A DNA stretch of 64,000 nucleotides, from the IMG/VR virus record IMGVR_UViG_3300030012_005163, positions 1 to 64,000 of that record, one strand, 5' to 3'. The translations under genes and the position numbers were made by a program. The notes beneath the pieces were generated by a model. It worked only from the letters and a program-made list of their open reading frames with translations, had not been told where the DNA came from and searched no databases. This DNA is from a virus. Shown here piece after piece: positions 16,546 through 30,245 of this stretch (position 1 is the first letter of the stretch; the number at the start of each line of letters is the position of its first letter).

Positions 16546-17343
16546 TTAAGTGGTTTCTACATCGTATGTTATTTCTCTATCTTCAGTGAAAAAATATTCT
16601 TTTTTAGCTTTATTTACCCAAAATTTACTTTCAAGTACGTTAACAGTGTTTTTATATTCATCAAATAATGATCCAGCACGATTATTAATATGTTTATATC
16701 CTAACTTAGGAATCACCATAATTTGGACATCTAAGTAACTTAATCTCAATAAAAATTCATAGGTAAAAGTTAACTTCATATGTTTCTTTAATCCACCATG
16801 TTCTTGAAATATTTCTTTATTTACTACCATCCCATCGAAATTGAAATTCTGTATTTTTTGTAAAGTTTCATTATCTAATAATCCCATATTTTCGGAAACA
16901 TTTTGTACCCATACATTTTCATTTGTAAAAGATATAAACTCACCTTTTTCATTACATTCAAATACTATTGGTAAAAATACTCCAACTTCAGGATATGATT
17001 CTCTATATTTTACAACATTATCAAACCATATTGGTGATAATACATCATCATACTCTAGAAAAGAAAAATAGTTACTAGTAGATTGTTCTACACCATAATT
17101 TATTTGTGATTGAAAATCATAATTACCTGTTTCATTTTCAATAACTTTTGTAATTTTTTTAATTTTACCATAATCAAAAGAATCTAAAAATTTAATTAAC
17201 TTTTTATCGTTTGAACGTACAATTAAAACTTCATCTGGTAAAATCTTTTGTTCAATTATACTATTGATTGCTTTTTCAAAATATTCACTAACACTATCAT
17301 CTAATTTATGTATAGGAATAATTAAACTAATATCTGTTTTCAT
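16546..17343 (-). CDS. Family 2-type glycosyltransferase (GT-A)
   Basis: A 265-aa glycosyltransferase. The N-terminus (DISLIIPIHKLDDSV) and the metal-binding acid motif (SFLEYDDVLSP, D99-D100) are typical of inverting GT2 enzymes that use nucleotide-sugar donors. No transmembrane helices are seen, so it is probably soluble. It starts 10 bases after the GT-B gene upstream and ends next to the gp55-like start, forming one operon. The acceptor is unknown: phage DNA bases, virion protein or host surface glycan are all possible. Confidence 0.82.
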   Translation of the reverse strand: MKTDISLIIPIHKLDDSVSEYFEKAINSIIEQKILPDEVLIVRSNDKKLIKFLDSFDYGKIKKITKVIENETGNYDFQSQINYGVEQSTSNYFSFLEYDDVLSPIWFDNVVKYRESYPEVGVFLPIVFECNEKGEFISFTNENVWVQNVSENMGLLDNETLQKIQNFNFDGMVVNKEIFQEHGGLKKHMKLTFTYEFLLRLSYLDVQIMVIPKLGYKHINNRAGSLFDEYKNTVNVLESKFWVNKAKKEYFFTEDREITYDVETT

Positions 17344-17353
17344 AACTATTTTT

Positions 17354-18484
17354 TTATTTTGTTGTAATTTCTTCTTTTTTATTATTTTTAGTCTCTTTAG
17401 CGTCTACCACCCCTAATTCAGTTAATCTTCTACTAAAAATTCTATTATATACTTCTTTAATTTGTTGTTTACTTTCTTTTTCTGTATATTTGTTTTCGTA
17501 CTCTTTCATTGTATTTAATACATTTTCAGGTAATGCATCTTCTAAATATAAACCAACCATAGTTGCTATCATATCAGGAATTGCATTTAAGTTAGTTACC
17601 CACACACCATTATCAATTAATTTAAGTGCACCATTTTCATCACTTTCCCCCATCCATTCTGGTATCATTCTCGGTATTTTACCAATAACTGGTGTTTCAC
17701 TTTTCATTGATTCTAAGGGAAAAGTACCAAAACTAGATAATTCATCTACCCAAACACTTAAAAATGATTCGGATAAACTTTTGGCAAACTCTTTTCTAGG
17801 TAATCCTGACATATCTCTAAAAGTAATGAAACGATAGTGAGGGTATTTTTGAAAAAATACTTTTACAATTTTTAAAATTTCTCTTTTGTCTCTAGCCGAT
17901 ATAGACACTGTAGGTATTTTTGGTTTTTCACTATTTTTAAAGTAATCTGGTATACCAATAGGTATAACTTCTGTCACTAAATTTCTAAAGATAGATTCTA
18001 CATATTTCTTTAAATTTTCATTTGTCGTAATAACCTCATTAATACCAAACGCATTCCAATTTTCACCAATCTCTAACATTTCAAAAATATATTCATATGA
18101 TTGTAAGAATACTATTCTTTTACAAGGAAAATTAACAGTTTGTTTCATTATACTTGCAAATGCTTCCGGAATTATCACAAAATCTTGTGGTCCTACTTGT
18201 AAAGTTTGAGATTCTATAGAAACGTGAGGTAGTTCAGCATATTCTTCACCTAACCATTCTGCGATTCCCATACCTTCTTCATTTCCTCTTAATCTATAAT
18301 CGTTTTTATCATGTAAAATTTGAGCATTAAACCCAAACTCCCTTAATGTTTTAACATGTTCATAAATTGTTGCCACACCTGCGGTGGGATTCCCTTTAGT
18401 ATCTAAAGTAAAAAAATAGATACCAAAATCTTTGTTTACTATTTTTTGAATAGTGTCTTTTACTGTGCTTTGATTGTCACTCAT
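17354..18484 (-). CDS. GT4-like glycosyltransferase (GT-B)
   Basis: A 376-aa protein with a two-domain GT-B layout. The N-terminal domain (DFGIYFFTLDTKGNPTAGVA, then LREFGFNAQILHD) fits the acceptor side. The C-terminal donor site contains SFGTFPLESMKSETPVIG near residues 250-267, corresponding to the E-x7-E region of GT4 enzymes. The ~30-residue tail is charged (EKESKQQ to ETKNNKKEE). It lies between an unknown 104-aa gene and a GT2 gene. Confidence 0.8.
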   Translation of the reverse strand: MSDNQSTVKDTIQKIVNKDFGIYFFTLDTKGNPTAGVATIYEHVKTLREFGFNAQILHDKNDYRLRGNEEGMGIAEWLGEEYAELPHVSIESQTLQVGPQDFVIIPEAFASIMKQTVNFPCKRIVFLQSYEYIFEMLEIGENWNAFGINEVITTNENLKKYVESIFRNLVTEVIPIGIPDYFKNSEKPKIPTVSISARDKREILKIVKVFFQKYPHYRFITFRDMSGLPRKEFAKSLSESFLSVWVDELSSFGTFPLESMKSETPVIGKIPRMIPEWMGESDENGALKLIDNGVWVTNLNAIPDMIATMVGLYLEDALPENVLNTMKEYENKYTEKESKQQIKEVYNRIFSRRLTELGVVDAKETKNNKKEEITTK

Positions 18485-18876: not shown

Positions 18877-19500
18877 TTATATATCTTCATATTCAATTGT
18901 TTCAGTACTTAAAATTTTTTCTAACATACTTTTATCTTCTAATAGTTCTTTTAAATCTACTACAGTATAATCAGAATTATTATTTTTATTATATGTGTTG
19001 ATAACCTTTACTGATACTTTATTATTTGGTTTAGTATCTAAAGTTTCAGGAGATGCAGTAATTAATACATCTACATGTTCCCACTTATTTACATAATCTC
19101 TTACAAACTTAATATTATTAACTTTAGAAGATAGTTTAGATAAGAAAAATAAAGTTGCTGGTTTACTATTGTTTAATTCTTTACTAATAATAATGGGGGT
19201 ATGCCCCATATCTTCTATCATATTATGTAATTGGTTTAAATGTTCAACGGAATTTAATTTTACTTCACCCGCATGACCAAATATTTCTAATGAAGCGTCT
19301 ACATACATAAATTTATTTAATTGTTGAGTACCCCCACTAAATTCGAAATATTTTAATAAATCTAAATCTTTAATATCTCTTTCAATTATTTTATTTTCAC
19401 CTGTTTCTTCATCAATAATTGGGTAATATTTATCATAAACTAATTCAAATTTTGTTATAAAATCTCTTATAACACCATCTATCGTAATTCCTATTTTCAT
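18877..19500 (-). CDS. HAD-like / deoxyribonucleotidase-like protein, probably inactive
   Basis: A 207-aa protein with the layout of phage HAD phosphatases related to 5'(3')-deoxyribonucleotidases: motif I region at the N-terminus (KIGITIDGVIRDF), a conserved-looking Ser motif (PIIISKELNN) and a C-terminal YTVVDLKEL. The expected motif I is DxDGV; here it is T6-I-D8-G-V, so the catalytic nucleophile Asp is replaced by Thr. Hydrolase activity is therefore doubtful and a binding role is possible. Its start overlaps the stop of phoH by 4 bases (ATGA), indicating coupling. Confidence 0.6.
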   Translation of the reverse strand: MKIGITIDGVIRDFITKFELVYDKYYPIIDEETGENKIIERDIKDLDLLKYFEFSGGTQQLNKFMYVDASLEIFGHAGEVKLNSVEHLNQLHNMIEDMGHTPIIISKELNNSKPATLFFLSKLSSKVNNIKFVRDYVNKWEHVDVLITASPETLDTKPNNKVSVKVINTYNKNNNSDYTVVDLKELLEDKSMLEKILSTETIEYEDI

Positions 19501-20246
19501 TGTTCTAATTTTTCAAATACCTCTTCTATTTTTTTTATTATTGGGTTTCTAACTACATCATTAGGATTTCTAAGTTGTACACAACCGAATCCTTCAACAT
19601 CTTTGAATTTATCCAATACTATTTCTAAAGAAGAATCTTTTTTATTTCTTATATCTTTTTGTCTTACGTCCCCCATAATAACCATTTTAGAATTATCACC
19701 TATTCTAGTCATTAATGTTCTTATGTTATCCATTGATATGTTTTGTGCTTCATCAATTAGTATTATAGAGTTATCTATACTTCTTCCTCTCGCAAATGCG
19801 ATGGGAACAATTTCAATAACACCTAATTCAATTAGTTTTTCCATCCTACTTCTACCAATTAATTTTCTAATATTATCAGTGAAAGATTCCATAATTGGTG
19901 CCATTTTATCTTTTAATTCACCCGGTAAATGTCCTATTTCTTCACCTTTTAACGCAGTAATAGATTTAACTAAAACAATTCTTTTGTATTTAGGTCTAGA
20001 TTTTATTAATTTAAGTGCTTCTGCACATGATAAAAATGTTTTTCCCGATCCCGGTAATCCACTACAAATAGTAATTTCGTTTTGTTTGATTGAATTAACT
20101 AATTTTTTTTGATTTTCTGTTTTACACTTAACGTGTACAGAGATGGTTTGGAATACTTTTTCTTCTTCTACATTATTCCTATTTAGGAATAATTCCATTT
20201 CTTCTATCTCTTCTTGTGAAAGTTGTTTGTTCTTTCTTCTACCCAT
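19497..20246 (-). CDS. phoH: PhoH-like ATPase
   Basis: A P-loop ATPase of the PhoH family, common in marine and T4-like phages; its physiological role is not settled (RNA-related or phosphate-stress-linked). It is 249 aa. Walker A is GLPGSGKT (63-70), Walker B is IILIDEAQN (161-169), and a sensor-like MGDVRQKD lies at 191-198. The segment IGHLPGELKDKM (104-115) is typical of the family. The start codon lies inside a perfect 10-bp inverted repeat, which suggests translational or operator control. It overlaps the HAD-like gene by 4 bases. Confidence 0.93.
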   Translation of the reverse strand: MGRRKNKQLSQEEIEEMELFLNRNNVEEEKVFQTISVHVKCKTENQKKLVNSIKQNEITICSGLPGSGKTFLSCAEALKLIKSRPKYKRIVLVKSITALKGEEIGHLPGELKDKMAPIMESFTDNIRKLIGRSRMEKLIELGVIEIVPIAFARGRSIDNSIILIDEAQNISMDNIRTLMTRIGDNSKMVIMGDVRQKDIRNKKDSSLEIVLDKFKDVEGFGCVQLRNPNDVVRNPIIKKIEEVFEKLEQ

Positions 20247-20361: not shown

Positions 20362-21180
20362 TTAAATATTTTTAAAAAAGTTTTCCATATACTTCAACTC
20401 TACAAGAGGATAGCTAGTATTAATTTTTTTAAAAACACTATCATTTTTTACTTCACAATAAAATTTATAATGATTTTTATAATTATCTTTAACTATCTGA
20501 TTTTTAACTGCTGGTGGTAAATTACTTTTGTACCCCCTCCAAATACCTAAATGTAATCCGTGATGTGGTCCACTCCCTCCTATATCTATTTTAAATTTAT
20601 TTTGAGGTAATTTACCTATACCTTTGTTAATTATATCGTATAATAAATGTTCATTTCTGTAACGTTGGGATAAAGATAGTTTTCTATTTTTTAGTTTTGT
20701 TGAGTATTGTTTTATAATATTAGACATTTTTTCATAATATTCTTTAACTTTAAAAAAGTGTAAACCGGTAAATCTTTTTTGTTTAGGTCTTATAGAATTA
20801 CTATACGGTAAGTTATTATTTTTTAAATGTGTTATATGGGTTTCTCCGAGTGTAGGGGTTTCTTTACATATTAATATATCTACATCACCAATATACACAT
20901 AATCAAAATCACTAAATACATCTTCAGGTATTACCCATCTAATAGATTTCAATTTTTGGTTATCTTTGGGGTATCCCGCAAAAAATCCTTCTTCAATAGA
21001 AACTAAATCGTTGTTAATAACATTAATTAATTCTTTAGTCTTTTCAGATAAACTTCCTAAAAATAAAACTTTTATAAAATAATTAGGGTAAGATTTAGTT
21101 ATAAAATAAATAAAATAAGGAATATATTTTTCATAATTTTTATTAACAACTACCGATATACAAATTTTATTATTCATCAC
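20362..21180 (-). CDS. GT-A glycosyltransferase, DVD motif
   Basis: A 272-aa predicted glycosyltransferase. FDYVYIGDVDIL (D99-V100-D101) is the metal/nucleotide-sugar binding DxD of GT-A folds, and the surrounding layout (LKSIRWVIPEDVF before, RFTGLHFFKVKEYY after) resembles GT8-like enzymes. It is the last gene of the operon that holds the deacetylase and acyltransferases. The substrate cannot be told from the sequence. The ATG at 21180 is followed at once by a second Met. Confidence 0.72.
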   Translation of the reverse strand: MMNNKICISVVVNKNYEKYIPYFIYFITKSYPNYFIKVLFLGSLSEKTKELINVINNDLVSIEEGFFAGYPKDNQKLKSIRWVIPEDVFSDFDYVYIGDVDILICKETPTLGETHITHLKNNNLPYSNSIRPKQKRFTGLHFFKVKEYYEKMSNIIKQYSTKLKNRKLSLSQRYRNEHLLYDIINKGIGKLPQNKFKIDIGGSGPHHGLHLGIWRGYKSNLPPAVKNQIVKDNYKNHYKFYCEVKNDSVFKKINTSYPLVELKYMENFFKNI

Positions 21181-21202
21181 ACTACAAATTTTTTATTTAA
21201 GT

Positions 21203-22111
21203 TTAATTTAATATATTATTTTTAACAAATTCTAAAGAAGTATGTTTTTTTGTCCACTCATACTGTTTTTTTGAAATCGATTTTATTTTATCAGGATTTT
21301 CAATAAAATCTTCAATGGTTTTACGTAATTCACTAGGATTAATACTTATACTAGGAGGGTTTTCAAAAAAAGGTTCAGTGATTAATTGTGGTGAGCTAGT
21401 AATAAGTACATTTTTAACTAACATAGCCTCTAAACCTGATTTACCAATACCACCCTTAAAACCTAATAATTTTTTAGACAAAGAAGTAGATACCATTTGA
21501 TCTATAAAAATATGTGTTTTTTCTTTAATTTTTATACAATCACTCCATTTTTTATCTCTAATCACTATTAGTTTTTGATCGTGTAAAGTTCTTTTAATAA
21601 ATTTAGTACCTTTTAAGTTACTAGAGTATTTTAAACCTGGAGAATGAGAAAAAGTAAGTTCCTCATATTTTTGTATTTCTTTATCTAATGGTATTCCTAT
21701 GTGTTGAAAATATGGTTTATATTTAATAGATTTATCCAAAAAAGGTATTTTATCAGGCATTATTAATACTTTTACATTAGGGTTATTTTTTAAAATATTA
21801 TTAACTCTTTTATTTTTCTTTAAAAATCTACCATCACTTATTACTATTATTAATTCTTTATTCTTAAATTTTTTTAATTCTATATTATCTAAAGATATTG
21901 CACCAAAAATAATTATTCTTTTAGAATTTTTTAATAAGTTAACACATAATTTAGTATTCTTTTCATAAAAAAATTTATTTTTAATCATAGAATCAAAATC
22001 TCTTCTTACCGACCTAACTAATATTGTACAACTATTTTCTATGTGGTTAGCAATAAAACTTATACCCCCATAGGAAGAGTCGTTAGAAAATAAAACTGTT
22101 TCTACCGACAT
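21203..22111 (-). CDS. GT-B-like glycosyltransferase
   Basis: A 302-aa protein with a probable GT-B fold. The C-terminal half contains GFKGGIGKSGLEAMLVKNVLITS (cited in part: GKSGLEAM near residue 224), the usual donor-binding E of GT4-like enzymes, and a C-terminal ETI-type helix (ELRKTIEDFIENPDKI). The N-terminal half is short. It starts 3 bases after the stop of the LpxD-like gene, so it probably acts on the same glycan. Confidence is moderate because the N-terminal domain is atypical. Confidence 0.65.
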   Translation of the reverse strand: MSVETVLFSNDSSYGGISFIANHIENSCTILVRSVRRDFDSMIKNKFFYEKNTKLCVNLLKNSKRIIIFGAISLDNIELKKFKNKELIIVISDGRFLKKNKRVNNILKNNPNVKVLIMPDKIPFLDKSIKYKPYFQHIGIPLDKEIQKYEELTFSHSPGLKYSSNLKGTKFIKRTLHDQKLIVIRDKKWSDCIKIKEKTHIFIDQMVSTSLSKKLLGFKGGIGKSGLEAMLVKNVLITSSPQLITEPFFENPPSISINPSELRKTIEDFIENPDKIKSISKKQYEWTKKHTSLEFVKNNILN

Positions 22112-22114
22112 AAT

Positions 22115-22999
22115 TTATTTTTTAATTATTTTTGCTGGTGTTCCAACATAAGTATTATTAGAATCTGCATTACTATTTAGAAAAGAATTAGCCCCTAAAG
22201 TAACATTAGAACCTACATTCATACCATTTTTTAAAGATGCGTTTATACCACAATAAAAATTCTCACCTATTGTATTAGAACCAGCAACTACACAATGTGA
22301 AGTAAATAGTGAATTTTCACCTATTATACAATTATGTCCAATGTTAGTATAAGAACCTAATTTACAACCTTTTTTAATAATAGTATTTTCTAATGCACCC
22401 TTTTTAATATCACTATGTGAACCAATTTCTACATTATCTTCTATTATAAGCCCCCCTATCTGAGGAAATCTAATCCACTCATCATTTGTGTTTTTTTCAA
22501 ATCCCATACCGTTAGTACCTAAACAGGAATTTTCTCTTATTATACAATTTTCACCAATAGTAACATTACTATGGATAACTACGTTAGGATATAGTATCGT
22601 ACCTTCACCTATAATAACATTTTTAGAAATATGAACGTTATCCATTATTGTAATATTAGGTGAATTATTTTTATGATAGTCAACATAGTTTGTGGGATTA
22701 ATTTTTTCCTCAACTAATTTTAAAATTAAAATATAAGTTAACCTAGAGGTAGTTTCCTCACAAACTAAATGAATAATATTTGGGTTTAATTTTTTAAGTT
22801 TTTTTAGTGTGTTATAATCACGCTCACTAATAATTAAAATTCCGTTAACAAAATTATTATAAAAACTAATATTTTTAACCCAATATAAACAATCTTCAGA
22901 TGTATCTTCTTTTTTACCAATTCTAAGATTTTCAAAAACACATTCATCTTTAAATTTTACATTACCTAGTTTTAATATGTCCTTAACTTTTACTTTCAT
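22115..22999 (-). CDS. LpxD-like N-acyltransferase
   Basis: LpxD transfers an acyl chain from acyl carrier protein to the 2-amino group of UDP-3-O-acyl-glucosamine in lipid A synthesis. This 294-aa protein has an LpxD-like N-terminal domain (residues 1-105) and a left-handed beta-helix of hexapeptide repeats (115-275). GTNGMGFE (161-168), FPQIGG (178-183), NVEIGSHSDI and IGHNCIIG follow the LpxD order. H222 aligns with the catalytic His of E. coli LpxD. The IDRG segment is replaced by DIKKG. I take the ATG at 22999: it gives a 17-base overlap with the upstream gene, whereas a longer frame to 23077 would add 26 unrelated residues. The acceptor may be a different amino sugar. Confidence 0.8.
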   Translation of the reverse strand: MKVKVKDILKLGNVKFKDECVFENLRIGKKEDTSEDCLYWVKNISFYNNFVNGILIISERDYNTLKKLKKLNPNIIHLVCEETTSRLTYILILKLVEEKINPTNYVDYHKNNSPNITIMDNVHISKNVIIGEGTILYPNVVIHSNVTIGENCIIRENSCLGTNGMGFEKNTNDEWIRFPQIGGLIIEDNVEIGSHSDIKKGALENTIIKKGCKLGSYTNIGHNCIIGENSLFTSHCVVAGSNTIGENFYCGINASLKNGMNVGSNVTLGANSFLNSNADSNNTYVGTPAKIIKK

Positions 23000-23495
23000 A
23001 AAGTTCTTTTTCTTTATGATACTTCTTTGCCGGATTACCAAAGTAAATCCCACTATCCATAATGTCTTTATTGACAAAAGACAATGAACCTATTGTAGTA
23101 TTATTTACTATAGAAATACCATGTTGTAAAACACTATTAGTGCCTATGAAACATTTAGCACCAATTTTAGCACCACCTATTTGTATTTTTCCTGAATCTA
23201 AATTATTCGTCATAACTCTAGGACAAACATAAGTATCATCACCAATTTCTACTCCTCTAGCGATTATTGAATCATATCTTAGTGTAACTCTATCACCAAT
23301 CTTACAATTTCCTGAAGTAGAAACTCTAGAATCAATATAACAGTCTTCACCAATGATGGTGTTTTTTCTAAGTTCTACATAATTTTTAATAATTGTGTTA
23401 TCACCAATGATAACATCTTCTTCTATCACACAAAAACTTCCTATTTGAACGTTTTCTCCGATAATTGCTTTTTCTGATATATTATTCATTTTCAT
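22983..23495 (-). CDS. Hexapeptide-repeat acyltransferase (LpxA/WbpD-like)
   Basis: A 170-aa left-handed beta-helix transferase. Hexapeptide repeats of the form (I/V)G(E/D)(N/D) run from residue 8 to about 150 (AIIGENVQIGSF, DVIIGDNTIIKN, NTIIGEDCYIDS). The C-terminus (GNPAKKYHKEK) is typical of acetyltransferases on UDP-amino sugars such as WbpD. The short length and lack of a helical C-terminal domain argue against true LpxA (about 260 aa). It is tightly placed between the deacetylase (16-base gap) and the LpxD-like gene (17-base overlap). Confidence 0.82.
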   Translation of the reverse strand: MKMNNISEKAIIGENVQIGSFCVIEEDVIIGDNTIIKNYVELRKNTIIGEDCYIDSRVSTSGNCKIGDRVTLRYDSIIARGVEIGDDTYVCPRVMTNNLDSGKIQIGGAKIGAKCFIGTNSVLQHGISIVNNTTIGSLSFVNKDIMDSGIYFGNPAKKYHKEKELYESKS

Positions 23496-23511
23496 AATTT
23501 TTTTGTTTTTG

Positions 23512-24156
23512 TTATAGTATCCATCTTATTACTTCAAAACATTCAGCGTATAAAGTATTTATCTGTACCCCCCTAGTTCTAGCTAATGACTTTACGAATT
23601 CTTCGTTAGCATAGGGTCTATGAGATTGAGATAAGTATTGTTTTATCGCTTCAATTTTTTTATTAATGTGTTTTTCCTCTAATTTCATAAAAGAAGTAGT
23701 ATTAAATGTTAAATTATTCCAAGGTAATTCATACGACAGTAAACTACTAAATTTAAACGCTCTAAACCCTTCTTGTGCAATAGTATAATGATCTTGATGT
23801 ACATCGGTTAATGAAGGTATAAAAACTATATCGGGTTGTATACTCTTTTTGAGTGTTAAAATATCATCTAATATTTCTTGTCGTTGGTAATTAAATGTTC
23901 TTACGTTATAATCTAAAAGGATTAAATTATCTTTTGGGATACCTAAAACCTTACTAGCTTTTTTAATTTCAGTAATTAAAATATCTTCAGGAAATTCTTT
24001 TTTAACTGATTGTTTACATGCAGAAAACGCTGCACAATAAACAATATTGCCGTCTTCTATTAACTTATTTACTGTTCCACCACAACCAAACTCTAAATCA
24101 TCAGTATGTGGGGAAAGAACTAAAACTTTTTTATTTTTAATATTCATCGTATACAT
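23512..24156 (-). CDS. PIG-L / LmbE family deacetylase
   Basis: A zinc-dependent N-acetyl-sugar deacetylase family (GlcNAc-PI de-N-acetylase, MshB, BshB). It is 214 aa. The metal-binding motif PHTDDLEFGCGG (H17, D19, D20) corresponds to the canonical PHPDDE, and TDVHQDH (H120, H123) supplies the third ligand and active-site His. The likely job is removing an acetyl group from an amino sugar, making the free amine that the neighbouring acyltransferases could use. It overlaps the upstream glycosyltransferase by 20 bases (11 if Met4 is the start). Confidence 0.88.
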   Translation of the reverse strand: MYTMNIKNKKVLVLSPHTDDLEFGCGGTVNKLIEDGNIVYCAAFSACKQSVKKEFPEDILITEIKKASKVLGIPKDNLILLDYNVRTFNYQRQEILDDILTLKKSIQPDIVFIPSLTDVHQDHYTIAQEGFRAFKFSSLLSYELPWNNLTFNTTSFMKLEEKHINKKIEAIKQYLSQSHRPYANEEFVKSLARTRGVQINTLYAECFEVIRWIL

Positions 24157-26572
24157 CTAACCAATCGTTATTAACATCTAAAAATTCAATAATATCATCT
24201 GCGACATTTTCACTATTTTCATTTCTTTTATCATATTCATTATTTATATGATTAATAATATCTTCTACTGTTTTATAATTCAAAGAATTAGGTGTATTAC
24301 CATTATGTACACAATGTCTTCCTGTTAACCCCATTTCTAAAACTGTATTAGGTAAACCATCATGTTTAGTTAACCTTAAACCAATAAAACAACTTTCATA
24401 AACTTTTTCTAACTCTTCTTCACTAAACGATTTCGCATTAGCTTCTATGATATTGTAATCAGTTTTTTCTTTAATAATATCTACTAAATCTCCACCGTAT
24501 TTAATTCTATCTTCACCACTATAAAAGTATATGTTTTCACCTTTTTTCTCTTTATAATTTTTAATTGGTGTTGTAGGTGTTATAGGTAATAATATATGTG
24601 GTATATTTTTTTTAGTTAAGGTTTCCGAGATGAATTTAGATTTCGCAATATGTCTTATTTTACCTGCTTGATTAATTAAATCTTTATTTAAAAATTGTGC
24701 ATCCGAACCACACCAAACAACCGTCTTATGTCCTTTATGGTTTATTAGTGCCATATAATCTTGCATAGTATATATTCCATTGAATATACAAGGTTTGTTA
24801 ATATCTGTGTATTCATTTAAACCGTATTTTTTTAATAACTTATTTTTAAAAAAACTTAAACCTGGCGCTACTCTCATTTGTGTAATAGTAGTAGGGGTAT
24901 TAATCTTTTCATCAACTTGATTTATTACTCTTTTATATAAATCTATATATTGTTCTGTAATATAATCTGTATTAAATAAATTCATATCTTTTGGAAATAT
25001 ATCATCTTTTATTTCCTCTATATCACCTGCGGGATCCACTAAATATCCAATCCCTTTTTTATTGTGTTTAAATCCTTCTATTAAAGTTCGTCCTAAATAT
25101 GAACCACATACTTTTTCACATTTCTCATATAACTCACTTAAATCTGACATTTCTTCAAAATATGTTACGTGTTCGTTTTCTTCACTTATTTTTTTAGCAT
25201 AACCAAAATCATTATCGTTACCAACTAAAACTAAATTTTGCCCCTTTGATTTGGTTTTTTCCGTAATATCATACACCATCTCTTTTCTAAGATAATTCAT
25301 TGTACCCGGTAATAAAACGAAATTTTCAATGTTAATACTTTCTTTAACGTTCTTATTATTATTTTTTTTATCTTCAGTTATATTATATATCATTTCAATA
25401 TCTGATTCTTTAATTTCTTTAAAATTTTTACACATATGTTCCTTAACTGGATCACTTATTGCAATATATTTTTTAATTTTTTCATCAAATAAAGGATATT
25501 CTACGGGTAAAGTTCTAGAACGTACAATGTTAACAAATTTGTTTTGTGGAAAAAGATTTAACAAAGTCTTACCTATTGGTTGATGATTTATCTGAATAAT
25601 ATCAAATTTCTCATCTTTTATTTTATAAAGTTTATTTTTTTCAGAAACTATTATTTTACCATTCATATTTAGTACCCATTTTCCATCACCTTTTTTATAA
25701 CCAGGAGGAGTATCTAAATTATGTAATTTAATCCCTATTTTTTTTGCCTTTTTTTCTAAAATCCCCCCTATATTTGAATAGACATGTACCTCACACCCTT
25801 TTTCTTTTAGTGATTTTGATAATTCAAAGGTTGAGATTTCAGATCCGGTTAATCCATTATAATTCATACACCCCAATAAAACTTTTAATTTTCTATTCTC
25901 AAAATTCTCATCTACATGCATGGGTAAATTTTGTTCATTATTCTTAACAAAAAGTTTTCTGTTTTCTTCCCACTCTACATTAGTCTGCCCTATAGACATA
26001 TGATTAATTCTAACTTTGGTAATTACACCAACCTTACATCCTTTAATTTTATTTTCTACACAGAAAGTTACATCATAAAAATGAAAACCTTTCACATCTT
26101 CATTAAACGTAGTTTTTATTTTGTCTTTTTTAAATGAAAACCATAATCCATCTACTAAAACTACCTCTTCTACGTTGTCACCTAAATCATCACTGTATAC
26201 ACTTAACCAACTTTTATTATTATGGGTGTGTTTAACTTTACCATACATTTTTTGTTGATTGTCCCACCATCTTCCACTTTTACTTAATTCTTTAGTACCT
26301 GCAACACCAATTATACTATATTGAGGATTTCTATCATATATTTTTAATAATTTCTTACCCCATTGTTTAGTTTCTATCATTATATCATCATGACATATAA
26401 CAATAGTATCATATTTTGCTTCTTTAATACCTCTATTATAACATTTAGTTAAAGACTCACCATTATTAATTATTTCAATTACTTCGATATGTTTATGAAG
26501 TCCAGATGATTTAATAATGTGTTCTTTATGTGAGGGCTTAGTTTCTCTAGTACAGTATATAACACTAATCAT
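24137..26572 (-). CDS. Multidomain glycosyltransferase (GT-A plus GT4-like)
   Basis: An 811-aa fusion. Residues 1-215 form a GT-A domain (MISVIYCTRETKPS, acid motif CHDDI with D62-D63, SGRWWDNQQ). From about residue 229 a GT-B part begins (KVLLGCMNYNGLTGSEIST), followed by a donor-like block (SYLGRTLIEGFKHNKKGIG near 500). A third part from about residue 600 (CIFNGIYTMQDYMALI, KTVVWCGSDAQF, then HDGLPNTVLEMGLTG) looks like another GT-B unit. Three catalytic parts in one chain suggest sequential sugar additions. It overlaps the 52-aa gene by 8 bases and the deacetylase by 20 bases. Confidence 0.8.
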   Translation of the reverse strand: MISVIYCTRETKPSHKEHIIKSSGLHKHIEVIEIINNGESLTKCYNRGIKEAKYDTIVICHDDIMIETKQWGKKLLKIYDRNPQYSIIGVAGTKELSKSGRWWDNQQKMYGKVKHTHNNKSWLSVYSDDLGDNVEEVVLVDGLWFSFKKDKIKTTFNEDVKGFHFYDVTFCVENKIKGCKVGVITKVRINHMSIGQTNVEWEENRKLFVKNNEQNLPMHVDENFENRKLKVLLGCMNYNGLTGSEISTFELSKSLKEKGCEVHVYSNIGGILEKKAKKIGIKLHNLDTPPGYKKGDGKWVLNMNGKIIVSEKNKLYKIKDEKFDIIQINHQPIGKTLLNLFPQNKFVNIVRSRTLPVEYPLFDEKIKKYIAISDPVKEHMCKNFKEIKESDIEMIYNITEDKKNNNKNVKESINIENFVLLPGTMNYLRKEMVYDITEKTKSKGQNLVLVGNDNDFGYAKKISEENEHVTYFEEMSDLSELYEKCEKVCGSYLGRTLIEGFKHNKKGIGYLVDPAGDIEEIKDDIFPKDMNLFNTDYITEQYIDLYKRVINQVDEKINTPTTITQMRVAPGLSFFKNKLLKKYGLNEYTDINKPCIFNGIYTMQDYMALINHKGHKTVVWCGSDAQFLNKDLINQAGKIRHIAKSKFISETLTKKNIPHILLPITPTTPIKNYKEKKGENIYFYSGEDRIKYGGDLVDIIKEKTDYNIIEANAKSFSEEELEKVYESCFIGLRLTKHDGLPNTVLEMGLTGRHCVHNGNTPNSLNYKTVEDIINHINNEYDKRNENSENVADDIIEFLDVNNDWLDVYDEY

Positions 26573-27959: not shown

Positions 27960-29216
27960 TTAAAACATCAAATTTTTTGCAGGTTCTTTTTTATTTATTA
28001 ATGATTTGTAAAGTAATAATCGTTTTTCACAAACAGATTTCATATCATATTTACCATTTACTTTTTTATATAGATTCTCACCTAATTTTTCGATTTCTTT
28101 AGGATTTTCAATTAAATATTTAATATGTTTAAACCAAAACTTATGATTTTTATTTTCAGGTATTAATATACCATTACATTTCTCAGTATTATAATTACCT
28201 CCTCTTTCATATGCATTTTCAATGTCTATTTGATAAGGTCCAAAATCTTGTCCTATTAAAGCTTTCTTATGAAATCCAGCTTCTATTACTTTTAACTGAG
28301 ATTTAACTCTATTAAAGTCACTTTCTTTAAGTGGTGCTAAAGAAACATCAAATAGATTATAATTAGATGCGTAACTAGTAATTGGTTTAGTCCATATTCT
28401 TCTATAGGGTTCATTTTTTACGTTTTCATATTCTTTCTTTTCAAATTTAAGTAAAAAATCTTTATATTCTGGACTAACAATTTTATAATTATCAGTAAAT
28501 ATTTTTTCGTATTTATACCATACACTTTCTTTTGGTTTAATAGGTCTTTGTTTTTGTTTACCAGTTTCTCTATCAATTACAGTCATAGTTCCTCTTAAAT
28601 CATATCCACATAATACAAATTGTACTTTATCTATTAAACCTGCAGATTTGATACTACTTACTACACCAGATAAAATTTCTAAATCTTTTAAGTGAGAAGA
28701 TCCACCTAACCAACCTATACGAACTCTATCACTTTTTTCTGTATTACTTTTATATTGTTTTTCTTCTGGATTAATTGCGTTAGGTAAAACAAATACATTT
28801 TGATTAAATTTTGTTATTTCTTTCGCAAAAATAGGTGTAGTTGTAGTTATGTTACGAGCAATTTTTAAATTATCTGCAATCTTTTTATTTAATTTTTGTT
28901 GTTTAATAATTGCCCAAGCTGGGTGATCAGGACCCGGTGCCCAATGATCATCAATATCCATAATAGTGGTTATACCTAACTCATCACATCTCTTAAGAAC
29001 AGACTCTATTTTTTCATATGGACCTAATGTTCTATGGTAATGAATTAAATCATATTGTTTTAAGAAATCATCACTCTCCAAATCTGGCTCATAATCTATA
29101 TCTACATAAAAGTCGTTAGGATAATATTCTTGTAATTTAATGTGGGGTATTGTAGAACGGTAATAAGATACACCTGTTCTATCACTAGGTACTACTAAAA
29201 TTTTTAATTTACTCAT
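27960..29216 (-). CDS. GT4-like glycosyltransferase
   Basis: A 418-aa GT-B enzyme. The N-terminus (LKILVVPSDRTGVSYYRSTI) carries the typical nucleotide-sugar/acceptor-side loop, and MDIDDHWAPGPDHPAW (near residue 92) is common in phage and marine GT4-like proteins. Donor-domain features include RIGWLGGSSHLKDLE (near 168) and VIEAGFHKKALIG (near 308). The start codon sits directly behind a 14-bp perfect hairpin. It lies in the same direction as, and upstream of, the HD/dUTPase/sugar genes. Confidence 0.82.
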   Translation of the reverse strand: MSKLKILVVPSDRTGVSYYRSTIPHIKLQEYYPNDFYVDIDYEPDLESDDFLKQYDLIHYHRTLGPYEKIESVLKRCDELGITTIMDIDDHWAPGPDHPAWAIIKQQKLNKKIADNLKIARNITTTTPIFAKEITKFNQNVFVLPNAINPEEKQYKSNTEKSDRVRIGWLGGSSHLKDLEILSGVVSSIKSAGLIDKVQFVLCGYDLRGTMTVIDRETGKQKQRPIKPKESVWYKYEKIFTDNYKIVSPEYKDFLLKFEKKEYENVKNEPYRRIWTKPITSYASNYNLFDVSLAPLKESDFNRVKSQLKVIEAGFHKKALIGQDFGPYQIDIENAYERGGNYNTEKCNGILIPENKNHKFWFKHIKYLIENPKEIEKLGENLYKKVNGKYDMKSVCEKRLLLYKSLINKKEPAKNLMF

Positions 29217-29267: not shown

Positions 29268-30245
29268 TTATAAATTTTTTACAACGTTTGTTTTAAAATC
29301 TTTTTTATAGGGTTCTAAATCTATAGGCTCAATCGGTATCGCTTTTATTTCTTCTTCAATAGGTGTAGTATAATAATATGGTCCCCATTCAGTATATCCC
29401 TCACCAATACCAAAAATACCAATATCTGGAAAACGATTTTGTGCGAATAGTAATCTAACAAAATTATCTTTTAATTGAAAACCTACATCGATAAAACTAT
29501 CAATATACTGATATTTAGTACTTAAGTTAACAGATTCTATTTTAATATTCACATATCTATCATCTACGATCTCTATGGAAACCGTACCGGAACCATAAAC
29601 TTCGAAGTAAATAGCACCACCTATATTTAAATCTCCGTTAATAGAAATATTGATTGTACCATCATTTAAATTATAATCTTTAAATATAATCTCATTTATT
29701 TCATATTTAACATCAACATTTCTTAATTTATTCCATTGTGTTTTTACAAATCCAACATTAACCGGTGATTTAACAGGTAAAAATTCACCTAATTTAGTTT
29801 TATCGTCAAAAGGTAATTGATTGTTAACTGCCGTATTTATAAGGTTTATTATTAAATCTTTATTTTCTCGTGTAGATAAAATTTCTACGATGTCTTCTGT
29901 CTTACCCTCAACAAACTTTATAATGTTTGAGACTGCTTTTGCGTAATCTATACCAAATTGATCACCGTTAGTTTCAAATCCAAAGTCAGATAGTACTTTT
30001 GATAGGTCTTCTACACTATTAATAGTATTATTATCACCCATTAAATAAACACCTAGTGCTTTTGCAGTCATATCACCAAATCCAGGCGCACCAGTATCTA
30101 TGCCCGTATGTTTTTCTATAAATTTTTGTATTTCATAATAATTGGGTCCTGGTAATTCTTGTTCTGTAACTATATTACCGTATAATCTTTCTTCATTAAA
30201 TAAAGATTTTATTCTAATAATTTCACTTAGAAAATGTTTTTCCAT
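29268..30245 (-). CDS. Unknown protein, possible virion component
   Basis: A 325-aa protein of unknown family. The N-terminus (MEKHFLSEIIRIKSLFNEE) resembles short helical leaders seen on other proteins here. Residues 40-160 look helical and residues 165-300 are strand-rich (NDGTINISINGDLNIGGAIYF), like a beta-sandwich or lipid-binding barrel. It is the first gene of its minus-strand unit; an ATATTTATTATT motif runs directly into its ATG. No catalytic motif is visible. Confidence 0.55.
   Translation of the reverse strand: MEKHFLSEIIRIKSLFNEERLYGNIVTEQELPGPNYYEIQKFIEKHTGIDTGAPGFGDMTAKALGVYLMGDNNTINSVEDLSKVLSDFGFETNGDQFGIDYAKAVSNIIKFVEGKTEDIVEILSTRENKDLIINLINTAVNNQLPFDDKTKLGEFLPVKSPVNVGFVKTQWNKLRNVDVKYEINEIIFKDYNLNDGTINISINGDLNIGGAIYFEVYGSGTVSIEIVDDRYVNIKIESVNLSTKYQYIDSFIDVGFQLKDNFVRLLFAQNRFPDIGIFGIGEGYTEWGPYYYTTPIEEEIKAIPIEPIDLEPYKKDFKTNVVKNL

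What the first reader, a model, noticed from the sequence alone, without database searches (positions are those of the whole stretch)
20362..26572. Phage operon combining a deacetylase with two acyltransferases and glycosyltransferases, echoing lipid A chemistry
Six overlapping or nearly abutting genes encode, in order, a multidomain glycosyltransferase, a PIG-L deacetylase, a short hexapeptide acyltransferase, an LpxD-like N-acyltransferase keeping the catalytic His (H222), a GT-B and a GT-A enzyme. Lipid A synthesis uses acylation (LpxA), deacetylation (LpxC) and N-acylation (LpxD) of UDP-GlcNAc. Here PIG-L would stand in for LpxC. The phage could make or remodel an N-acylated amino sugar that decorates its virion or alters the host envelope. 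Seen: gene content, motifs, overlaps. Known: family chemistries. Inferred: a joint pathway.
Basis: partly seen in the sequence, partly recalled or inferred. Interest (0 to 1): 0.78.

Follow-up and report, generated by a model that had tools for sequence, protein, structure and literature searches.

The report
Phage sugar island with acyl-swap enzymes
A large phage carries an exchangeable block of sugar genes with a deacetylase and an LpxD-like acyltransferase that probably swap the acyl group on an amino sugar; it echoes two steps of lipid A synthesis but looks like surface-glycan chemistry.

Summary
The six genes are real. PIG-L passes its Pfam cut-off. The 294-aa protein is LpxD-like, with His222 aligned to the LpxD active-site His, but starts at 22999 and misses both LpxD cut-offs. 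The last two "glycosyltransferases" match no family. The block is the cargo of a variable sugar island: of 23 loci found through PhoH, 7 show both borders (dUTPase, PhoH); one is this phage or a near copy, one keeps five genes in order (dN/dS 0.05-0.23), five hold other sugar genes. A 100/97 branch puts the LpxD-like protein with phage, haloarchaeal and Bacillota proteins from loci without lipid A genes, apart from all 24 lipid A LpxDs in the tree. Among fetched Bacillota loci, PIG-L lies near such a gene in 4 of 8 and near a lipid A lpxD in 0 of 59. So deacetylase plus LpxD-like acyltransferase is a recurrent glycan module, not lipid A synthesis. The same record also encodes a full-length LpxA-like protein about 126 kb away, over one of two curated cut-offs, so an LpxA/PIG-L/LpxD-like triad is less likely but not excluded. 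Best reading: N-acyl exchange on a host-supplied (UDP-)amino sugar for a phage-made glycan. Acyl group and target are unknown.

The parts
24137..26572 (-). GT811: fused glycosyltransferase; about residues 1-220 (GT2-like) occur in L029, L030, L031 and L043, about 1-550 in L039 and L034, and 580-807 as a free-standing gene in L030 and L044
   Evidence: PF13712 109.9 bits, PF13439 29.6; module borders; no tblastn match in the 50,697 GenBank phage records
23512..24156 (-). PIG-L/LmbE-type deacetylase, 214 aa, motifs PHTDD (His17, Asp19, Asp20) and HQDH (His120, His123)
   Evidence: PF02585 65.3 bits against 28.2; 92% in L002, dN/dS 0.05; 51% to Bacillota L097, 59% to phage L165
22983..23495 (-). 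short left-handed beta-helix (hexapeptide) acyltransferase, 170 aa, NeuD/QdtC/WlbB-like
   Evidence: PF00132 97.5 bits; TIGR03570 95.8 of 160.8; QdtC 3fs8 E 4e-16, and LpxD 4e75 E 2e-20 over residues 6-79; 79% to a protein in a NeuB-bearing phage island
22115..22999 (-). LpxD-like N-acyltransferase of surface-glycan type, 294 aa, His222; N-terminal part resembling the LpxD uridine-binding domain, no C-terminal extension
   Evidence: TIGR01853 165.8 of 242.5; alignment; tree 100/97; Foldseek ranks 1-22 all LpxD, on a low-confidence model
21203..22111 (-). 302-aa protein, possible GT-B transferase (motif only)
   Evidence: no family, no PDB match, AF2 pLDDT 37.7; 78% ortholog in L002, dN/dS 0.23
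20362..21180 (-). 272-aa protein, possible GT-A transferase with DVD motif (motif only); in L002 its place is taken by a sulfotransferase gene and a methyltransferase-like gene (latter by eye)
   Evidence: no family over cut-off, no PDB match; L002
26729..27349 (-). dUTPase-like gene, left border of the variable sugar island
   Evidence: seen in 7 of 23 loci; named by eye, not scanned
19497..20246 (-). PhoH-like gene, right border of the variable sugar island
   Evidence: matches annotated PhoH genes
27960..29216 (-). flanking glycosyltransferase (PHROG 7162)
   Evidence: 147.9 bits; in 5 of 23 loci
17354..18484 (-). flanking 376-aa protein, called glycosyltransferase by eye only
   Evidence: no family; in 15 of 23 loci
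16546..17343 (-). flanking GT2 glycosyltransferase
   Evidence: PF00535 43.4 bits; in 15 of 23 loci

Best explanation
The block is the cargo of a variable sugar island between the dUTPase and PhoH genes of a large phage. PIG-L removes the N-acetyl group of an amino sugar, most simply UDP-GlcNAc or a sugar the host makes from it, since no PF01370 epimerase/dehydratase or DegT aminotransferase was found in the phage record. The LpxD-like enzyme, a relative of lipid A LpxD found in surface-glycan loci, binds the (probably UDP-linked) free amine and puts another acyl group on it, with His222 as base; the donor is acyl-CoA or acyl-ACP. The 170-aa hexapeptide enzyme probably acetylates a second position. 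The transferases then add the modified sugar to a growing glycan. None of the six proteins shows a membrane-like hydrophobic stretch, so a cytosolic acceptor such as a virion protein is favoured over an exported polysaccharide. Shown: gene content, conservation, purifying selection, linkage of deacetylase and LpxD-like genes, tree side. Inferred: substrates, order of steps, acyl group, acceptor.
For: Island: 7 of 23 PhoH-linked loci show both borders; L026 is this phage or a near copy, L027 keeps five genes, L029, L030, L031, L039 and L043 carry other cargo; Pfam confirms GDP-mannose dehydratase and epimerase (L043) and GFO/IDH (L039) there, and UDP-GlcNAc 2-epimerase, WbqC (L044) and DegT (L034) upstream of PhoH where the left border is out of view. 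dN/dS 0.05-0.23. Module: PIG-L beside the LpxD-like gene in Bacillota L097 (15 nt), L114 (32 nt), L100 (overlapping ORFs), one gene away in L098; 0 of 58 loci with lipid A/Bam markers have PIG-L, Fisher p 1.6e-4 for 4/9 against 0/58 (related genomes, so not a strict probability). Deacetylase-like plus LpxD-like plus hexapeptide genes also in phage L039 and Bacillota L096; a haloarchaeal LpxD-like gene has an annotated polysaccharide deacetylase two genes on. Tree: 100/97 branch. Shared architecture with two haloarchaeal proteins. No PF01370 or PF01041 in the record, controls 14 of 14. Hydropathy maxima 0.59-1.11 for the six proteins.
Against: Only one diverged phage relative has the same cassette. 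4 of the 8 Bacillota loci have no PIG-L (one of these, L096, has the other deacetylase-like protein), and that protein matches no Pfam family. The AF2 model is weak (pLDDT 54.6, TM about 0.24) and PF04613 did not appear, so the uridine-binding domain is not proven. In the tree the phage branch is very long (2.12), seven rows including the phage, L002, L039 and haloarchaeal proteins have odd composition, and order within the non-lipid-A side is weak. The 263-aa transferase-like protein beside the LpxA-like gene does have a hydrophobic stretch (1.84), against a purely cytosolic system. The LpxA-like gene is not explained by this reading unless it acts separately. The record may be incomplete.
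Confidence: 0.6

Rival explanations
1. Lipid-A-like triad: the LpxA-like protein (phage 152433-153194) 3-O-acylates UDP-GlcNAc, PIG-L deacetylates it in place of LpxC, and the LpxD-like protein N-acylates it, giving a UDP-diacyl-glucosamine for a phage glycolipid or altered lipid A.
For: LpxA-like protein full length, NF003657 232.4 of 226, HVSHD aligned with the LpxA active-site region, C-terminal part present. No aminotransferase in the record, so deacetylation is the obvious source of a free amine. lpxA and lpxD have been listed as viral auxiliary genes in marine viromes (PMC9529941, PMC10653327, passages).
Against: TIGR01852 228.6 is under 231.05. The LpxA-like gene lies about 126 kb from the cassette on the other strand; none of 23 related records, many of them fragments, has one over cut-off (6 have weaker hexapeptide matches). 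The LpxD-like protein groups apart from lipid A LpxDs and lacks the C-terminal extension. No LpxH/LpxB/LpxK noticed by eye in window 12-36 kb or in ORF starts of 64-198 kb; the rest was not read and no family search was made.
Confidence: 0.12
2. The cassette alters the host surface glycan (receptor masking, superinfection exclusion) rather than the virion. It shares the enzyme chemistry of the best explanation and differs in the acceptor.
For: The module's cellular kin sit in surface-sugar loci. Phage genes that change host polysaccharide are known (PMC6586298, PMC12053666: titles and abstract starts only). The transferase-like protein beside LpxA has a hydrophobic stretch.
Against: No flippase or polymerase noticed by eye in the cassette and no hydrophobic stretch in its six proteins.
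Confidence: 0.3
3. The glycan hypermodifies phage DNA.
For: Phage glycosyltransferase clusters that modify DNA are reported (Pyle 2024, seen only as a citation in PMC12619734; the paper itself is not held).
Against: No thymidylate-synthase-family protein in the record that could make a hydroxymethylated base (PF00303 0 of 1, control 9 of 14). The TET/JBP search is uninformative, as no control rang.
Confidence: 0.08

Closest known systems
LpxC/LpxD steps of lipid A synthesis
   Same: Deacetylation of an amino sugar followed by N-acylation by a left-handed beta-helix enzyme with a conserved His; LpxD-like core sequence
   Different: PIG-L instead of LpxC; LpxD-like protein below both LpxD cut-offs, apart from lipid A LpxDs in the tree, no C-terminal extension, no lipid A gene neighbourhood
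LpxD-like proteins outside lipid A loci (Halorientalis L055, Haloprofundus L056, Bacillota L096-L100, L114, L161, L162)
   Same: Tree side; company of sugar genes and often a deacetylase; the two haloarchaeal proteins share the short architecture
   Different: Cellular; several loci also have sugar-nucleotide genes, which were not found in this phage record. The listings of searches show no paper on such a pair
Viral lpxA/lpxD auxiliary genes in marine viromes (PMC9529941, PMC10653327)
   Same: LpxA- and LpxD-type genes on viral contigs (passages)
   Different: Those passages list single genes by annotation; no PIG-L partner or glycan context is mentioned in them
Phage sugar clusters: Flavobacterium phage immuto, Vibrio phage VH2_2019, phage DLP5, moraphages
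   Same: Sugar-modifying genes: VH2_2019 has PIG-L with a glycosyltransferase and a WbqC-like gene; immuto has aminotransferases, transferases and a pilin-glycosylation-type hexapeptide protein; DLP5 has PIG-L and WecE (PMC5834331, passage); moraphages have four core glycosyltransferase groups and mostly Bacteroidota hosts (PMC12619734, passages and section 13)
   Different: No annotated LpxD-like gene in the two stretches opened; kinship of this phage with moraphages not tested
WlbB/WbpD, QdtC, NeuD amino-sugar acetyltransferases
   Same: Fold and partial sequence of the 170-aa protein
   Different: Below the NeuD cut-off; no DegT aminotransferase in this phage record

Membership tests
LpxD (lipid A N-acyltransferase) | Curated HMM cut-offs TIGR01853 242.5 / NF002060 207 | tested here: not met
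   165.8 and 163.8 bits
LpxD (lipid A N-acyltransferase) | Active-site His after I(A/G) | tested here: met
   His222 aligned with E. coli LpxD 3eh0 and with a His in all nine other sequences of the alignment; catalytic role recalled
LpxD (lipid A N-acyltransferase) | N-terminal uridine-binding domain | tested here: inconclusive
   Foldseek ranks 1-22 are LpxD chains, best E 9.8e-4, TM about 0.24, model pLDDT 54.6; alignable N-terminus; PF04613 not listed
LpxD (lipid A N-acyltransferase) | C-terminal extension after the helix (ACP contact, recalled) | tested here: not met
   ends at VGTPAKIIKK, like L039 and the haloarchaeal proteins
LpxD (lipid A N-acyltransferase) | Falls among lipid A LpxDs | tested here: not met
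   other side of a 100/97 branch; no AU test was run
PIG-L/LmbE deacetylase | PF02585 over cut-off | tested here: met
   65.3 of 28.2
PIG-L/LmbE deacetylase | Metal-site motifs (H-x-D-D and a later D-H) | tested here: met
   PHTDD 16-20 and HQDH 120-123; H-x-D-D and the final D-H kept in all six aligned proteins; assignment of ligands recalled
PIG-L/LmbE deacetylase | Deacetylase activity on a sugar | not testable with these tools
   bench assay needed
BshB1 (bacillithiol deacetylase) | TIGR04001 cut-off 182.5 | tested here: not met
   62 bits
LpxA (protein at phage 152433-153194) | Curated cut-offs NF003657 226 / TIGR01852 231.05 | tested here: inconclusive
   232.4 passes the first, 228.6 misses the second; tree place unresolved, long branch
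NeuD/PglB/VioB acetyltransferase (170-aa protein) | TIGR03570 cut-off 160.8 | tested here: not met
   95.8 bits
Glycosyltransferase (302- and 272-aa proteins) | Match to a GT family or fold | tested here: inconclusive
   no family over cut-off, no PDB match, poor model for the 302-aa protein; 272-aa protein not modelled

The most novel reading that the evidence does not exclude
The phage encodes its own lipid-A-like three-step route (LpxA-like O-acylation, PIG-L deacetylation, LpxD-like N-acylation) that turns host UDP-GlcNAc into a diacylated sugar nucleotide, which its glycosyltransferases use to lipidate its glycan or virion or to divert the host's lipid A precursor: a viral glycolipid pathway built with a non-homologous deacetylase.
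Probability: 0.12. Interest if true: 0.86.

Novelty: new variant of a known kind. Interest (0 to 1): 0.5.

Why it matters
LpxD-like genes can be annotated as lipid A genes even in archaea (L055 carries such a term), and lpxA/lpxD have been listed among viral lipid A genes. Here a tree and gene neighbourhoods separate a second, surface-glycan side of the LpxD family that recurs beside deacetylases in bacteria and phages and occurs in haloarchaeal sugar loci. That suggests a general acyl-swap device for amino sugars and a caution for annotation. It would widen the known N-acyl chemistry of phage glycans and gives testable enzymes. The LpxA-like gene in the same phage makes a viral route to acylated sugar nucleotides directly testable.

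Tried and rejected
Lipid A membership of the cassette: tested by cut-offs, architecture, neighbourhood and tree, and rejected as the leading reading. Bacillithiol (BshB1) role: below cut-off. DNA modification: disfavoured, no PF00303; the TET/JBP search told nothing. Cellular kin through genome contigs: one weak hit only. LpxA kin in viral contigs: none confirmed. Matches to LpxD (18 records) and LpxA (10 records) in the 'phages' collection: of those opened, L022 (short unverified fecal scaffold with an LpxC-like neighbour, by eye) and L024 (Acinetobacter contig with a chromosomal lpx run) look bacterial, L023 is a Helicobacter phage record whose lpxD sits with host-like genes, and L021 (immuto) matched only by a hexapeptide protein; the others were not opened. 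LpxD hits from Fusobacterium, Prevotella and Phocaeicola records are ordinary lipid A genes by neighbourhood, read by eye. Structure of the 302-aa protein failed.

Literature: searches; I saw the listings, and passages of PMC12837969, PMC10013915, PMC12619734 (plus its section 13), PMC9529941, PMC10653327 and PMC5834331. One search (PIG-L, LpxD, glycosyltransferase, phage) found 0 papers. The lpxA mentions in PMC12837969 and PMC10013915 are gene-name tables that do not show a phage lpxA, but PMC9529941 and PMC10653327 do list lpxA (and lpxA/D) as viral auxiliary genes; so lpxA in viruses is in print, and I lowered the interest a little.

Rows dropped and naming: 85 match rows in 74 of 299 genomes; I fetched loci for the 67 strongest (E up to 5.5e-17) and dropped 18 weaker rows. 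One search gave 9 loci without lipid A/Bam markers (4 with PIG-L) and 58 with (0 with PIG-L). L107 lacks detected markers but is sister to a lipid A LpxD at 100/98, so I quote 4 of 8 and 0 of 59 by recount; p 1.6e-4 belongs to the 9/58 table. Of the 8, seven have sugar-gene labels and L161 has none, but transferase-like genes by eye. Marker and sugar labels rest on proteins I named by eye. The PIG-L profile was built from the phage protein and three of the four Bacillota proteins later counted; L097 and L114 pass PF02585, L098 and L100 were named by motif and profile only. The tree used 19 of the 58 lipid A Bacillota loci.

Full report
Observation. The six genes exist as described, on the minus strand, closely packed. 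PIG-L and hexapeptide families pass their cut-offs and the first gene is a fused glycosyltransferase. The LpxD-like gene most likely starts at 22999 (294 aa). The two last genes have no family support.

The genome. The window lies in a virus record of 198,361 bases. Blastn of the cassette finds no match in GenBank phages, and tblastn finds none for GT811 or the 302-aa protein. PIG-L relatives occur in 26 of 50,697 phage records, all under 60% identity. In IMG/VR, two records carry the cassette: L001 (LpxD-like and PIG-L 100%, so this phage or a near copy) and L002 (LpxD-like 82%, PIG-L 92%). In L002 the first five genes keep their order; the sixth is replaced by a sulfotransferase (PF03567) and, on the other strand, a methyltransferase-like gene (by eye). 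dN/dS between the two is 0.05-0.23 for the five genes, with dS near or above 1 for three.

A variable island. A scan with PhoH gave 23 loci. Seven show both the dUTPase and PhoH: L026 (same contig as L001), L027 (same as L002), and L029, L030, L031, L039, L043, which carry other cargo with a GT811-like gene near its start; L030 and L031 share part of theirs. Pfam confirms GDP-mannose dehydratase and epimerase (L043) and GFO/IDH (L039); in L044 and L034, where the left border is out of view, UDP-GlcNAc 2-epimerase, WbqC and DegT. GT811 is built of modules that are separate elsewhere. Two flanking transferase-like genes are kept in 15 of 23 loci and a third in 5 of 23; 8 loci show only PhoH of the genes compared. 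In a second island beside DnaJ, other relatives carry NeuB (PF03102) with a PIG-L 59% identical to ours (L165) or with a hexapeptide protein 79% identical to ours (L166), so these genes are shuffled among phages. PIG-L is over cut-off in 3 of 23 records (this phage's near copy, L002's and L165's); strong LpxD-like matches are in 3 (near copy, L002's and L039's).

The LpxD-like protein is not a lipid A LpxD. It misses both cut-offs. Like L039's protein and two haloarchaeal proteins from sugar loci it lacks some coils and the C-terminal extension; archaea make no lipid A (general knowledge). A search of 299 genomes of Borkfalkia's phylum (Bacillota by NCBI) found matches in 74; 67 of 85 match rows were fetched. 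A tree of 38 proteins has a branch of 100/97 support with 3 phage, 2 haloarchaeal and 8 Bacillota proteins on one side and all 24 lipid A LpxDs plus L107 (read as lipid A) on the other. Order within the first side is weak, the phage branch is long, and several rows have odd composition.

Linkage. PIG-L lies beside or one gene from the LpxD-like gene in L097, L098, L100 and L114, and in none of the loci with lipid A/Bam markers. The L097 PIG-L is 51% identical to the phage's. In L096 and in phage L039 a different deacetylase-like protein (34% to each other, no Pfam family) stands directly before the LpxD-like gene, with hexapeptide and oxidoreductase genes following. This replacement suggests that deacetylation goes with LpxD-like action. 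Against this, four of the eight Bacillota loci show no PIG-L, one of them having the other protein.

The LpxA-like gene. At 152433-153194 of the record lies a 253-aa LpxA-like protein: NF003657 232.4 of 226, TIGR01852 228.6 of 231.05. It aligns over most of its length with LpxA structures, and a transferase-like gene overlaps its end. None of 23 related records has an LpxA over cut-off; 6 have weaker hexapeptide matches, the best 101.6 bits. Its 353-aa neighbour is found in 1 of 23 records, the one of 253,879 bases; there that gene and the NUDIX-like gene lie 479 bases apart with no LpxA or transferase between, so the pair was gained in one phage or lost in the other. Its tree place is unresolved. 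Marine virome papers list lpxA, one also lpxD, among viral auxiliary genes.

Mechanism. The record has no PF01370 epimerase/dehydratase and no DegT aminotransferase, so the phage probably takes its sugar nucleotide from the host and can gain a free amine by deacetylation. I infer N-acetyl removal by PIG-L, re-acylation by the LpxD-like protein, further acetylation by the 170-aa protein, and transfer. No membrane-like stretch appears in the six proteins, which favours a cytosolic acceptor such as a virion protein; but the transferase-like protein beside LpxA has one (1.84), so this is weak evidence. Mycobacteriophage virion glycans are a known parallel (recalled, and described in a passage of PMC12619734).

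Host and kin. Large aquatic phages called moraphages have four core glycosyltransferase groups, DnaJ genes and mostly Bacteroidota hosts (passages and section 13 of PMC12619734). This phage has a DnaJ-like gene at 159988-161016 and conserved transferases, so kinship is plausible, but it was not tested.

Verdict. A new variant of a known kind: a phage sugar island with an acyl-swap pair that copies the logic of LpxC-LpxD within glycan chemistry. The bolder triad reading stays open at about 0.12.

Noticed in passing
L012:12433-13194 (phage record 152433-153194, +): LpxA-like protein over one of two curated LpxA cut-offs, with an overlapping transferase-like gene; the matching spot in a related 254-kb record lacks both.
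   Followed up: yes
window 29268-30245; phage record 72324-72767, 76498-77355, 150552-151574, 172639-174974: Several otherwise different proteins share short N-terminal leaders (MEKxI..EIKRIKxLFxEERLYGN, or M+IKLTExQYxKL type), perhaps a common targeting or packaging tag. Seen by eye.
   Followed up: no
phage record 156517-157968 (+): Protein that by eye resembles the Ro60/TROVE RNA-binding family; a 60% identical protein lies in the related record G007.
   Followed up: no
L165, L166, L167 (second island beside DnaJ in related phages): NeuB-family genes (Pfam in L165 and L166; by eye in L167) with cytidylyltransferase-like, oxidoreductase-like, hexapeptide or PIG-L genes: phages of this group may make nonulosonic-acid-type sugars.
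   Followed up: partly
L055:7767-8585 (Halorientalis plasmid): LpxD-like protein in an archaeal sugar locus annotated with a lipid A process term, which is probably misleading; Haloprofundus L056 has a similar protein without that term.
   Followed up: partly
L039:5870-6499 and L096:5896-6627: A deacetylase-like protein family (HDVD/HDID and GHEIG motifs, by eye) without a Pfam match, directly before LpxD-like genes in a phage and a bacterium.
   Followed up: partly
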